Origin: Fusobacterium necrogenes
Lineage (GTDB): Bacteria > Fusobacteriota > Fusobacteriia > Fusobacteriales > Fusobacteriaceae
Assembly (NCBI RefSeq): GCF_900450765.1
Contig: NZ_UGGU01000003.1
Location: forward strand, 124,001-188,000
DNA: 64,000 bases
Direction: 5' to 3'
Under the pieces are notes generated by a model. The model saw only the letters and a program-made list of their open reading frames with translations. It ran no database searches and was not told the DNA's origin. The translations under genes and the position numbers were made by a program. Below, one piece after another: positions 8,883 through 46,562 of this stretch (position 1 is the first letter of the stretch; every line of letters begins with the position of its first letter).

Positions 8883-9040
8883 GTTAAATAGATATTTAAA
8901 AGAAGAAACTACCTGTTTCTCACCTTATGGGCATTAGCTTACACAAGGTCAAAAGCTTTTTTTAATGATAGTTACGTTTATTTATTATAAAAGTTAGAGA
9001 TACAGGGCATAGTTTGTCCTGTTTTTATTTATAATTTAGA
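8883..9040 (+). promoter_or_regulatory. Structured infC leader with attenuator-like hairpin
   Basis: The leader begins with a small hairpin (AGAAAC, 8904-8909, with GTTTCT, 8915-8920). Near its end ACAGG (9002-9006) pairs with CCTGT (9018-9022), followed by a T-rich run, an attenuator-like layout shortly before the ribosome site. In Firmicutes the infC-rpmI-rplT operon is controlled by L20 binding to its leader, and the same is inferred here. The L20-binding fold itself was not resolved by eye. Confidence 0.55.
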
Positions 9041-10267: not shown

Positions 10268-10361
10268 ATGATATTCATATATATGTAAAAAAAAAATTAA
10301 AAAAAAATAAAAAAATATTTAAATGTAACGAAGTTGTCACAAAGGAAAGATATAATAAGTT

Positions 10362-10437
10362 TGTAATAAATCTTTCCCCAAGATATTTTAATATAGATTA
10401 GTAAAAATAGCAGACAAAAGTCTGCTATTTTTATTTT
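10362..10437 (+). ncRNA. Candidate small RNA, copy A of the CTTTCCCC family
   Basis: An intergenic unit with promoter-like elements TGTAAC (10324-10329), TTGTCA (10334-10339) and TATAAT (10351-10356), then the core CTTTCCCCAA (10372-10381), and then a strong terminator (ATAGCAGAC and GTCTGCTAT with a T run, about 10406-10436). The predicted transcript is about 75 bases with no open frame of note. Copy B near 45.18 kb on the other strand has the same elements at exactly the same distances, although its flanks are unrelated. Fusobacteria have known small RNAs, but whether this is one of them was not tested. The C-rich core is a natural seed for pairing with G-rich ribosome sites (inference). 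Confidence 0.6.
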
Positions 10438-14350: not shown

Positions 14351-14495
14351 TAGTAAAAAAATCTCTATTACCATCAAGTAATAGAGATATAATAGAGCTT
14401 TTTAGTTCTATCCATCTTTCTGGAATTAGCACCACACTTTAAAGCAGGTTGCTGAAACTTCTTTGGGCCAGTCCCTCGGTTTCTCTTGATGGTTA
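14351..14495 (-). promoter_or_regulatory. SAM-I (S-box) riboswitch with terminator, controls metNIQ
   Basis: On the minus strand the leader shows the S-box landmarks in order: CCATCAAGAGAAACCGAGGG, ACTGGCCC, GAAGTTTCAGCAACC, the GTGTGGTGCTAATTCC arm, and GATGG closing P1 (arms 14488-14494 and 14410-14416). Downstream, ATCTCTATTAC and GGTAATAGAGAT form an intrinsic terminator with a T run (14355-14388), 28 bases before the metN start. With S-adenosylmethionine bound, transcription should stop. The remaining gap to 14675 holds only the promoter and AT-rich sequence. Confidence 0.95.
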
Positions 14496-17012: not shown

Positions 17013-17124
17013 TTATACACTCCATATAATTATATTTTAAATATTCAAAATAATTATATCAAAAAAATAAAATAATTTAAACTTTTTCCAAAAAAATTTC
17101 GTCAAAAAGATGTAGTAATTAATT

Positions 17125-17178
17125 CATAAAATTCTTTCCCCAAAAAAAGAGGAGTCTATAGTTGTATAGGCTCCTCTT
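17125..17178 (+). ncRNA. Weak candidate for a third CTTTCCCC small RNA / bidirectional terminator
   Basis: CTTTCCCCAA (17134-17143) is followed directly by a strong hairpin: AAAGAGGAG ... CTCCTCTTT with an inner CTATA/TATAG stem and a T run. The upstream promoter elements of copies A and B are not conserved (only a GTCA at 17101-17104 and TAGTAA at 17113-17118). The hairpin also works on the minus strand as the terminator of the VOC gene, which may be its only role. Confidence 0.3.
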
Positions 17179-17187
17179 TTTATAATA

Positions 17188-17556
17188 TTATTTTCTAACT
17201 GGCACTATCTCTATCCAATAACCATCTGGATCTCCTATGAAATAGATTCCCATAGCTGGATTTTCATAGATAATAATTCCCATTTCTTTATGTTTTTTAT
17301 AGGCTTCTTCATAGTTTTCAGCGGTGATAGCTAGATGGAATTCTTCGTCACCTAAATCATATTTTTCTTTTCTATCTCTGAGCCAAGTGAGTTCAAGGGA
17401 GAAATGTCCTTCGCCATCCCCTAGATAAACTAGCTTATAACTACCATCTTGAGCTTCTTTTCTTCTTACTTCTTTCAATCCAAGAGCTTCTTTATAAAAT
17501 TTTAAACTATTTTCTAAATCTAATACATTGAAATTAAAATGATTAAATTTAAACAT
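17188..17556 (-). CDS. VOC family protein, glyoxalase I-like
   Basis: 122 residues covering one glyoxalase/bleomycin-resistance (VOC) unit. The start FKFNHFNFNVLDLENSLKFY and the end MGIYFIGDPDGYWIEIVP fit lactoylglutathione-lyase-like proteins, with metal ligands expected at the first His, the mid Glu (HFSLELT) and the last Glu (WIEI). In bacteria without glutathione the substrate is uncertain. It is divergent from the MBL-fold gene, with overlapping promoters. Confidence 0.8.
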   Translation of the reverse strand: MFKFNHFNFNVLDLENSLKFYKEALGLKEVRRKEAQDGSYKLVYLGDGEGHFSLELTWLRDRKEKYDLGDEEFHLAITAENYEEAYKKHKEMGIIIYENPAMGIYFIGDPDGYWIEIVPVRK

Positions 17557-43857: not shown

Positions 43858-45012
43858 TTACTTTATATTTTCTACCCATTCTTGGTTATCTAAATACCAT
43901 CTAATTGTTTTTTCTATTCCTTTATCAAATGGAGTTTCTGGATACCAACCTAACTCCACTGCTATTTTTGTTGGATCTATTGCATATCTTGCGTCGTGTC
44001 CAAGTCTGTCTTGCACATATGATATTAAATTGTAATTGATATTTTCAATACCTGTTTTTAATATTTTTCTATATTCAGGTTCTTCTGTCATTATTTTAGC
44101 TATTGTATCTATTGTCAATTTTACTATATTGATATTTTTTTCTTCGTTAAATCCCCCAATATTGTAAATTTCTCCTAATTTTCCATTATTTATTACCATA
44201 TCGACAGCCTTATTGTGATCTTTTACAAATAGCCAATCTCTCACATTACTTCCATCTCCATAAACTGGAAGAGTTTTTCCTTCCAATATATTTTTTATAA
44301 TTAACGGAATCAATTTTTCTGGGAATTGGTACGGACCATAATTGTTTGAACATCTTGTAATATTGATAGGTAGTTTATATGTCTCAGCATAGGCCCTTAC
44401 TATCATGTCACCTGAAGCCTTTGATGATGAATATGGTGATCTTGGATCCAAAGGAGTTTCTTCAGTAAAGAACTTATCTCCATAAGTTTTTAGTTTATCT
44501 CTTCCCTCAACGACTTTTTTTACATTTTCATCAAGATGTAGAGCTTTAGCTTCTACATAATCTCTATTTAAAGAGCCATAAACTTCATCAGTTGAAATTT
44601 GGATATATTTTTTCCCTTCTTTATATATAGGATATCCATTTTCATCTCTTCCTATAGTCCAGTTGTCTTTTGCTACTTCTAATAAATTTTGTGTTCCTAA
44701 TATATTTGTTTCTAAAAAAACTTTAGGACCAAGAATACTCCTATCTACATGAGATTCAGCTGCAAAGTTAACTACATAATCTATATCATACCTTGCAAAG
44801 ATATTTTCAACTAGTTCTTTGTTAGCAATATCTCCTTTGACAAAATCTATTTTATTATGCTCAATTTCATCTTTTAAACTATCTTTATTTCCAGCATAAG
44901 TAAGCTTATCTAAGACTATTATTTGTATGTTATTTTCATATTTTTCAAGCATGTACTTTACGAAGTTTACTCCTATAAATCCGGCTGCTCCTGTGACTAA
45001 GTATGTTTTCAT
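43858..45012 (-). CDS. rfbB: dTDP-glucose 4,6-dehydratase
   Basis: 384 residues, extended short-chain dehydrogenase. VTGAAGFIGVNFVKY binds NAD, ISTDEVYGSL and YSSSKASGD give the catalytic Thr-Asp-Glu and YxxxK motifs, and RCSNNYGPYQFPEKLIP is typical of RfbB. It makes dTDP-4-keto-6-deoxyglucose for rhamnose. The next steps (RfbC-RfbD fusion) lie 10 kb away in the glycan cluster; RfbA is not in the window. Confidence 0.95.
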   Translation of the reverse strand: MKTYLVTGAAGFIGVNFVKYMLEKYENNIQIIVLDKLTYAGNKDSLKDEIEHNKIDFVKGDIANKELVENIFARYDIDYVVNFAAESHVDRSILGPKVFLETNILGTQNLLEVAKDNWTIGRDENGYPIYKEGKKYIQISTDEVYGSLNRDYVEAKALHLDENVKKVVEGRDKLKTYGDKFFTEETPLDPRSPYSSSKASGDMIVRAYAETYKLPINITRCSNNYGPYQFPEKLIPLIIKNILEGKTLPVYGDGSNVRDWLFVKDHNKAVDMVINNGKLGEIYNIGGFNEEKNINIVKLTIDTIAKIMTEEPEYRKILKTGIENINYNLISYVQDRLGHDARYAIDPTKIAVELGWYPETPFDKGIEKTIRWYLDNQEWVENIK

Positions 45013-45101
45013 ATTCCTCTCCTTTAGTTTTAAGTTTTATCTTTCGTTCATATTTTAACATTTTCTTAAAAAAAAAACAAATAGAATAATAGATATATAA
45101 C

Positions 45102-45181
45102 AAAAAACCACTGGTTTGCACCAATGGTTTCTTGTTGTTTGTTATCTAATATATAAAATATTTTGGGGAAAGATTTATTAT
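45102..45181 (-). ncRNA. Candidate small RNA, copy B of the CTTTCCCC family
   Basis: Read on the minus strand: TGTAAC (45220-45215), TTGTCA (45210-45205), TATTAT (45193-45188), then CTTTCCCCAA (core at 45172-45163), and a strong 11-bp terminator hairpin AAACCATTGGT/ACCAGTGGTTT with a T run (to about 45102). The predicted RNA is about 80 bases. Distances between all four elements equal those of copy A near 10.36 kb, and the bases around the core (AATAAATCTTTCCCCAA) agree. It lies between der and rfbB with no coding potential. Confidence 0.6.
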
Positions 45182-45239
45182 GGTTTAATAATATCATAGA
45201 ATTATGACAAAATTGTTACAGATTAATTATAAATTTGTA

Positions 45240-46562
45240 CTAATTCTCTCCAGTTTTCTTTTCGAAACTAATTAGGATAGGAGAACCATCAAAACCAAAA
45301 GCTTCCCTAAATTTATTTTCAATATATCTAGCATATGAAAAATGAACTAACTCTGGATAATTACAGAATAAAACAAATCTTGGAGGTGCAACAGATACTT
45401 GTGTAGCGTAATTAATTTTTACAACTCTACCTTTTCTTGTAGGTGGATTATTCATAAGTATAGCTTCTTTAAGTACTGTGTTTAAAATACCAGTAGATAT
45501 TCTTTTATTATATTCTTCAAATATTTGATCAGCTATTTCTAGAAGTTTTGTTGTTCTTTGTCCTGTTAAAGCTGATACAAACTCTATTGGAGCATAAGAT
45601 AGGAATGGTAACTCTGCATAAAGTTTTTCTCTCATCTTCTCCATAGTGTTAGATTGTTTATCTACTAAATCCCATTTATTAACTACTACAATTATAGGTT
45701 TTAACTCTTCAGCAGCTATTCCAGCTATTCTTTTATCTTGCTCACTTAGTCCCTCTTTTCCATCTAACATAAGTAAGCATACATCTGCTCTTTTTATAGT
45801 TTTGATAGCTCTAAGAACAGAGTAGTATTCTAAGCTTTCCTCTATTTTGGATTTCCTTCTAATACCAGCAGTATCTATTATCATATATTTTTTTTCATCA
45901 AATTCAATGATAGTATCAATAGCATCTCTAGTAGTTCCAGCTATGTCACTTACTATAGTTCTTTCTTCTCCAGCTAGTCTATTTACGAGAGAAGATTTTC
46001 CAGCATTAGGTTTTCCTATAATAGCAAGTTTTAAGACATCTTCTTCCTCTTCAGGAATATCTATTTTTTTAATCATATCTGTAACCATATCCAACATATC
46101 CCCAAGGTTTACCTTATGTCCTCCAGAGATTGGTATAAGATGTTCAAACCCTAATGCCCAGAAATCATATACATCATCTTGTTGCTCTAAGAAGTTATCT
46201 ATCTTATTTACACATAGAATGATTGGTTTATTTTTCTTTCTTAAGATATAAGCTATTTCTTCATCTAATGGGTTTACTCCACACTTACCATCAACAACAA
46301 ATAAAATCACATCAGCTTCATTCATAGCAACTTCTGCTTGTTGTTTAATTTTTGTCATCATAAAGTCGTTATTTCTCGGTTCAAGCCCTCCAGTATCCAC
46401 TACCACAAACTCTGTACCATTCCATTCTGTTTCTCTATAAAGTCTATCTCTTGTAACTCCTGGCATATCATCAACGATAGCCACTCTATCTCCTACTAGG
46501 TTATTAAATAAGGTTGACTTACCCACATTTGGTCTTCCAACTATTGCAACAATAGGTTTCAT
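45240..46562 (-). CDS. der: Ribosome assembly GTPase Der (EngA)
   Basis: 440 residues with two tandem GTPase domains: GRPNVGKST, DTGG and NKID in the first; GKPNAGKSS, DTAGIRR and NKWD in the second. A KH-like C-terminal domain follows (FCNYPELVHFSYARYIENKF). Der matures the 50S subunit and is essential in most bacteria. It begins 4 bases from the stop of the YgiQ-type gene, so the two are co-transcribed. Confidence 0.97.
   Translation of the reverse strand: MKPIVAIVGRPNVGKSTLFNNLVGDRVAIVDDMPGVTRDRLYRETEWNGTEFVVVDTGGLEPRNNDFMMTKIKQQAEVAMNEADVILFVVDGKCGVNPLDEEIAYILRKKNKPIILCVNKIDNFLEQQDDVYDFWALGFEHLIPISGGHKVNLGDMLDMVTDMIKKIDIPEEEEDVLKLAIIGKPNAGKSSLVNRLAGEERTIVSDIAGTTRDAIDTIIEFDEKKYMIIDTAGIRRKSKIEESLEYYSVLRAIKTIKRADVCLLMLDGKEGLSEQDKRIAGIAAEELKPIIVVVNKWDLVDKQSNTMEKMREKLYAELPFLSYAPIEFVSALTGQRTTKLLEIADQIFEEYNKRISTGILNTVLKEAILMNNPPTRKGRVVKINYATQVSVAPPRFVLFCNYPELVHFSYARYIENKFREAFGFDGSPILISFEKKTGEN

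What the first reader, a model, noticed from the sequence alone, without database searches (positions are those of the whole stretch)
10324..10437. Small-RNA family, copy A: promoter, CTTTCCCCAA core and terminator in the rplT gap
TGTAAC-4-TTGTCA-11-TATAAT-15-CTTTCCCCAA, then a strong terminator, giving a transcript of about 75 bases. Copy B at 45102-45220 on the other strand repeats every element at the same distance, in an unrelated gene context. A C-rich unpaired core is what one expects of a seed that covers G-rich ribosome sites. The shared TGTAAC and TTGTCA could be the site of one regulator or an alternative sigma factor.
Basis: partly seen in the sequence, partly recalled or inferred. 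Interest (0 to 1): 0.65.

Follow-up and report, generated by a model that had tools for sequence, protein, structure and literature searches.

The report
Multicopy C-loop small RNA family, Fusobacterium
A gut-type Fusobacterium and its close relatives each carry about 4 to 14 scattered copies of one short RNA gene, most of them behind the same predicted envelope-stress control site and all showing the same short C-rich "hook" thought to grip messenger RNAs; the family is in no RNA database searched here, and some copies ride on phages.

Summary
Copies A and B are two of five copies (plus one relative with another promoter) in this genome. All 12 genomes held of its genus (F. mortiferum and relatives) carry about 4-14 copies; 49 genomes of 13 other genera of the family have no real copy, and Rfam has no such family. 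Shared parts: an 11-bp direct repeat (TGTAAC-N5-TGTCAC), an extended -10 box exactly 10 bp on, the core AAATCTTTCCCCAA(G/A)AT(G/A)TTTTA, and a different terminator per locus. Most copies converge on the next gene, so they are sRNA genes, not leaders. The repeat fits an OmpR-family response regulator, not a sigma factor. The same box heads an operon of a Spy/CpxP/ZraP-like protein with murE-kdsA-kdsD, pointing to envelope stress. Copy B sits directly after der, the FoxJ locus of F. nucleatum. A third CTTTCCCCAA RNA, at 17134, has a sigmaE-type promoter. Prophage copies use other promoters. Best reading: envelope-stress base-pairing sRNAs that work like Listeria LhrC. Targets could not be shown (seed matches at start sites do not exceed chance), the regulator is not identified, and no transcript data were available.

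The parts
10324..10340 (+). copy A: direct repeat TGTAAC-GAAGT-TGTCAC, predicted response-regulator box
   Evidence: 29.3 bits with the -10
10351..10356 (+). copy A: -10 box TATAAT, 10 bp after the repeat
10363..10437 (+). copy A: predicted sRNA, about 75 nt (5' end inferred from the -10)
   Evidence: next gene is convergent
10368..10390 (+). copy A: conserved core AAATCTTTCCCCAAGATATTTTA; predicted seed, UCCCC in the loop of AUCUU/AAGAU
10400..10437 (+). copy A: terminator stem-loop and T-run
45204..45220 (-). copy B: direct repeat TGTAAC-AATTT-TGTCAT, predicted response-regulator box
   Evidence: 31.7 bits with the -10
45188..45193 (-). copy B: -10 box TATTAT
45100..45182 (-). copy B: predicted sRNA, about 80 nt, directly downstream of der (45240-45162 side: der is 45240-46562 on the same strand), the FoxJ position
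45154..45176 (-). copy B: conserved core AAATCTTTCCCCAAAATATTTTA; hairpin broken by a C.A mismatch, core unstructured
45100..45135 (-). copy B: terminator stem-loop
17080..17103 (+). sigmaE/ECF-type promoter AACTTTTT..CGTC of a third CTTTCCCCAA RNA (FoxI/FoxJ-like)
17104..17182 (+). third RNA with CTTTCCCCAA (17134-17143) and its own terminator; 5' end inferred

Best explanation
Copies A and B are two genes of a multicopy sRNA family of the genus of F. mortiferum and relatives that Rfam does not list. Shown from sequence: each has its own promoter, the common core and its own terminator, and the copies lie in many different gaps. Inferred: an OmpR/PhoB-family response regulator that senses envelope damage binds the 11-bp direct repeat in place of a -35 box and switches the copies on together, along with an operon of a Spy/CpxP/ZraP-like periplasmic protein with murE-kdsA-kdsD. 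Inferred: each RNA of roughly 65-90 nt offers UCUUUCCCCAAG (in a weak hairpin loop or unpaired) and pairs with G-rich mRNA sites such as Shine-Dalgarno regions to lower translation of envelope proteins; several copies give dose and room to diverge. The sigmaE-type RNA at 17134 shows the same seed, so two stress pathways would meet on one target set.
For: 12 of 12 genomes of the genus have 4-14 copies, none real in 49 genomes of 13 other genera. Box and -10 at fixed spacing in 62 distinct promoters. Searched without the core, 48 of 60 box hits run into the exact core. Terminators unrelated between loci but present at nearly all. 54 of 88 copies have the next ORF on the opposite strand. Six of the 12 other box hits head the small protein-murE-kdsA-kdsD operon, and the same operon in this genome, which was not in the training set, has a box of 20.9 bits with the -10 at the exact distance, while nothing but sRNA copies exceeds 18.2 in 864 kb. 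The small protein's best solved-structure match is ZraP, E 0.0098. C-rich seeds of FoxI/FoxJ and LhrC act on envelope or surface protein mRNAs (PMC11005410, PMC4132741).
Against: No transcript data. The regulator is not identified; none of the 7 OmpR-type regulators has the box within its fetched flank. Seed complementarity at 703 start sites is not above permuted seeds, and exported proteins are not favoured. No covariation in the hairpin, broken in copy B's group. The ZraP likeness is weak. Invariance of TCTTTCCCCA among collected copies is partly by construction, as it was the bait.
Confidence: 0.68

Rival explanations
1. The copies are simply orthologues of the known sigmaE-dependent sRNAs FoxJ/FoxI, in another species.
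For: Copy B lies directly after der like FoxJ; C-stretch in a hairpin loop as reported for FoxJ; RNAs with sigmaE-type promoters and C-rich runs stand after der in G027 and G047.
Against: A and B lack the AAC..CGTC promoter and have another box; length about 75-83 nt against about 156 nt; FoxJ is one gene, here 5-14; the sigmaE-type RNA of this genome is a separate gene at 17134.
Confidence: 0.12
2. The conserved core is not a base-pairing seed but a binding site for an RNA-binding protein, and the copies act as a sponge that titrates it.
For: A 23-nt core kept nearly unchanged in many copies and no sign of targets; F. nucleatum is said to lack Hfq and ProQ.
Against: C-rich single-stranded seeds are the rule for sRNAs of AT-rich bacteria; some copies repeat the motif in the terminator loop as LhrC does; no such protein is known here.
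Confidence: 0.1
3. The elements are attenuators or leaders of the genes downstream.
For: 33 of 88 copies are followed by an ORF on the same strand, copy B among them (rmlB-like gene at 43858-45012).
Against: 54 of 88 face a convergent ORF, copy A included; downstream genes are unrelated; no alternative fold of the terminator was seen.
Confidence: 0.04
4. A mobile or repetitive DNA element (MITE/REP-like) without RNA function.
For: Dispersed copies, tandem pairs, copies on phages.
Against: Only promoter and core are conserved, the terminators are unrelated yet present, and orthologous copies keep their neighbours between species.
Confidence: 0.03
5. A and B are transcribed by an alternative (ECF) sigma factor through TGTAAC/TTGTCA.
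For: An AAC motif in the box; a sigmaE-type promoter drives a sister RNA.
Against: The two half-sites repeat directly every 11 bp, too close for -35/-10, and an extended -10 of the TGnTATAnT type follows at a fixed 10 bp.
Confidence: 0.03

Closest known systems
LhrC1-5 sRNAs of Listeria monocytogenes (PMC4132741)
   Same: Multicopy, short, C-rich motif in loops (in 9 copies here also in the terminator loop), LhrC controlled by an OmpR-type two-component system under envelope stress; Hfq not needed
   Different: No sequence family in common by Rfam search; LhrC carries three CUCCC motifs per RNA, most copies here one; the regulator is predicted only; 4-14 copies in every species of a genus
FoxJ of Fusobacterium nucleatum (PMC11005410)
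   Same: C-stretch in a hairpin loop; locus directly after der (copy B); envelope-stress setting
   Different: FoxJ is sigmaE-dependent, about 156 nt, one gene, before ylmH; here a response-regulator-type box, about 75-83 nt, many genes
FoxI of Fusobacterium nucleatum (PMC11005410)
   Same: C-stretch seed in a linear region; the RNA at 17134 has the sigmaE-type promoter and an exposed CTTTCCCCAA
   Different: FoxI's sequence was not held, so orthology of 17134 is not tested; A and B have another promoter
Phage-encoded sRNAs that act on host sRNA circuits in E. coli (PMC4104026)
   Same: sRNA genes carried by phages of the host
   Different: Here the phage RNAs carry the host family's core under other promoters; no function shown

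Membership tests
FoxJ | gene directly downstream of der | tested here: met
   Copy B only; G000-G005. Copy A: no. ylmH does not follow.
FoxJ | sigmaE-dependent promoter | tested here: not met
   A and B have the direct-repeat box and -10, no AAC..CGTC
FoxJ | C-stretch in a hairpin loop | tested here: inconclusive
   Predicted in A, broken in B; no covariation
FoxJ | length about 156 nt | tested here: not met
   Predicted 75-83 nt
FoxJ | sequence homology to FoxJ | not testable with these tools
   FoxJ sequence not printed in the text held; earlier papers not held
FoxJ/FoxI | repression of the porin FomA by the C-stretch | not testable with these tools
   No expression data; start-site statistics negative
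LhrC | several copies per genome | tested here: met
   4-14 per genome
LhrC | sequence/structure family of LhrC in Rfam | tested here: not met
   No Rfam match to the copies, even at E up to 5
LhrC | control by an envelope-stress two-component system | tested here: inconclusive
   Box of the right type, shared with an envelope operon; regulator unknown
OmpR/PhoB-type activated promoter | direct repeat of about 11 bp ending about 10 bp before a -10 without a -35 | tested here: met
   62 distinct promoters
Pho regulon (PhoB) | same box before pstS | tested here: not met
   pstS has TGTCTTAATATTGTCTTAAC; no box-like site by the matrix
Spy/CpxP/ZraP proteins (co-regulated gene) | profile match to the LTxxQ-type family | tested here: inconclusive
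   ZraP E 0.0098, Metal_resist E 0.016 below cut-off

The most novel reading that the evidence does not exclude
One seed (CUUUCCCCAA) has been put under at least three kinds of control in one lineage: a two-component envelope-stress box (multicopy), a sigmaE-type promoter, and phage promoters near a holin-like gene. The phage copies would mimic the host family and retune its envelope control during lysogeny or lysis, and the sRNA at the FoxJ locus would have changed hands from sigmaE to a two-component system.
Probability: 0.3. Interest if true: 0.75.

Novelty: new variant of a known kind. Interest (0 to 1): 0.62.

Why it matters
Knowledge of sRNAs in Fusobacteriota rests largely on FoxI and FoxJ of F. 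nucleatum. This gives another branch of the group a large sRNA family with a defined promoter box and a predicted envelope regulon, which one end-mapping experiment and a few regulator deletions can test. If right, it shows an envelope-stress sRNA multiplied up to about 14 times and rewired between a sigma factor and a two-component system, in a group reported to lack Hfq and ProQ, with phages carrying the same core.

Tried and rejected
PhoB as the regulator: the box resembles a pho box, but pstS has another repeat. CRP/FNR palindrome: variants such as TTTCAC-N5-TTTCAC are direct repeats. ECF sigma for A/B: wrong spacing. My first sigmaE pattern had the wrong spacer and found nothing real; corrected. 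A peptide in the core (frame KSFPKMFY): no start codon in most copies. Targets: perfect GGGGAAAG before ATG against the reversed pattern (many hits are the antisense of the copies themselves), duplex energies and a signal-peptide test, exact 7-9-mers against permuted cores: none above chance; only 703 genes were at hand. Covariation of the hairpin: none. Literature searches for this family found nothing in the held library; the two earlier FoxI/sigmaE papers are not held. Structure prediction of the small protein was not tried, because its locus came from a source outside the tool's stated list.

Full report
Observation. Both copies are in the sequence as described. A: TGTAAC-4-TTGTCA-11-TATAAT-15-CTTTCCCCAA at 10324-10381. 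B: the same on the other strand at 45220-45163, with TATTAT. Each is followed by a stem-loop with a T-run; the predicted RNAs fold far better than shuffles, owing to the terminators. The spaced TGTAAC/TTGTCA pair occurs three times in the 2.0-Mb genome, two of them here.

Family. BLAST of copy A against 12 genomes of the same genus gave several hits in every one, and reading them out showed one architecture. A core pattern gave 4-14 copies per genome, and a single chance hit in 49 genomes of 13 other genera. Named matches include Fusobacterium mortiferum An814 and Fusobacterium sp. S1M_St_21, so the genus is that of F. mortiferum and relatives (inferred). No Rfam family covers the copies.

Promoter. 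From 62 distinct sites: ttTGTaACAnaatTGtCAcAAnnnntTGgTATanT. Half-sites TGTAAC/TGTCAC, in some copies TTTCAC/TTTCAC, repeat directly every 11 bp; the second ends exactly 10 bp before an extended -10. That is the layout of OmpR/PhoB-type activation (established knowledge), not of a sigma factor. Searching box plus -10 without the core, 48 of 60 hits in 12 genomes run into the exact core (my count). This is the least biased test, since the copies were otherwise collected with the core as bait. A minority of copies have other upstream sequences.

RNA. The conserved stretch is AAATCTTTCCCCAA(G/A)AT(G/A)TTTTA. Most copies can form AUCUU-UCCCC-AAGAU; copy B's group has a C.A mismatch, and no pair covaries. 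The C run is exposed either way, but the hairpin is not proven. Terminators are unrelated between loci yet present at nearly all. Nine copies repeat CUUCCCC in the terminator loop (my count), as LhrC repeats its motif (PMC4132741). 54 of 88 copies face a convergent ORF, copy A among them, which excludes leaders for these.

Regulon. Of the 12 box hits without the core, six lie before a small signal-peptide protein followed by murE, kdsA and kdsD (Pfam domains; gene names are mine from the translations and domains). The small protein has an LTxxQ-like motif; its best match among solved structures is ZraP (E 0.0098) and Pfam Metal_resist comes at E 0.016, below the cut-off. Both are weak but point to the Spy/CpxP/ZraP group of envelope-stress chaperones. 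In the window's own genome the orthologous operon was looked up afterwards, and a box of 20.9 bits with the -10 at the exact distance stands before it. In 864 kb of the genome only sRNA copies score above 18.2. PhoB is excluded because pstS carries another repeat. Seven OmpR-type regulators exist; which one binds is not known.

Relation to FoxI/FoxJ. FoxJ of F. nucleatum lies directly after der (PMC11005410). Copy B lies directly after der, and so do its counterparts in G001-G005. In G027 and G047, of two other genera, the same place holds RNAs with AAC..GTC promoters and C-rich runs, in G047 as a tandem array. The window also has, at 17080-17182, an RNA with the ECF-type promoter and TTCTTTCCCCAA; the pattern recurs in G001-G005 and in four genomes of another genus. 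So the same seed appears under two stress promoters. Copy B fails the sigmaE and length tests and is not filed as FoxJ.

Phages. Three viral contigs carry the core; two of them have three copies each within about 2.4 kb, near a holin-like gene (named from its translation) and with other promoters, one of them TTGACA-17-TATTAT. Loci L186, L189 and L214 of the bacterial genomes are of this kind.

Function. The most likely mechanism is base-pairing of UCUUUCCCCAAG with G-rich sites around start codons of envelope genes, under an envelope-stress regulator. Target evidence is missing: three tests gave nothing above controls, on 703 genes or on perfect seed matches. The mechanism rests on analogy with FoxI/FoxJ and LhrC and on the predicted regulon.

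Verdict. A real multicopy sRNA family, not listed in Rfam or found in the held literature. Control by an envelope-stress response regulator is likely but unproven; the targets are open.

Noticed in passing
window 14409-14495 (-): SAM riboswitch (RF00162, 70 bits) before a methionine-type ABC transporter operon.
   Followed up: no
window 8894-9036 (+) (L004:95-237): L20 leader (RF00558), E 2.5e-7 but below the gathering score, before infC-rpmI-rplT.
   Followed up: no
L303 (G047, after der): Tandem array of short sRNA units, each with a sigmaE-type promoter (AAACTTT..GCGTC), a TTTCTC-TCCCCC-GAGAAA-like hairpin and a terminator, at the FoxJ position.
   Followed up: partly
L350, L351, L352 (viral contigs): Phage contigs with the family core; two have three copies each near a holin-like gene, with non-host promoters.
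   Followed up: partly
L228:2020 and L229:2036 (G007, G008; also G010): The same box and -10 drive a different very short hairpin RNA (ATTTCCCTC..GAGGGAT) before an efflux-pump-like gene.
   Followed up: no
G000:C3:1305549 (-): Box-like site of 18.2 bits with -10, 12 nt before the start of a HydF-like GTPase gene.
   Followed up: no
G000:C3:1236691 (+), locus L238: An OmpR-family regulator gene has ATCTTGGGG, a 9-nt complement of the core, just before its start; possible feedback, but about 1.5 such matches are expected by chance.
   Followed up: partly
G000:C3 about 109.8 kb (L346 near 5900): pstS promoter with direct repeat TGTCTTAATATTGTCTTAAC, a likely Pho box of this organism.
   Followed up: partly
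L287 (G031, after der): Repeats with unique spacers, CRISPR-like, begin shortly after der.
   Followed up: no
window 17188-17556 (-); L262-L266: The glyoxalase gene beside the sigmaE-type sRNA here is the convergent neighbour of der in G006-G010, a sign of a rearrangement at the FoxJ locus.
   Followed up: partly
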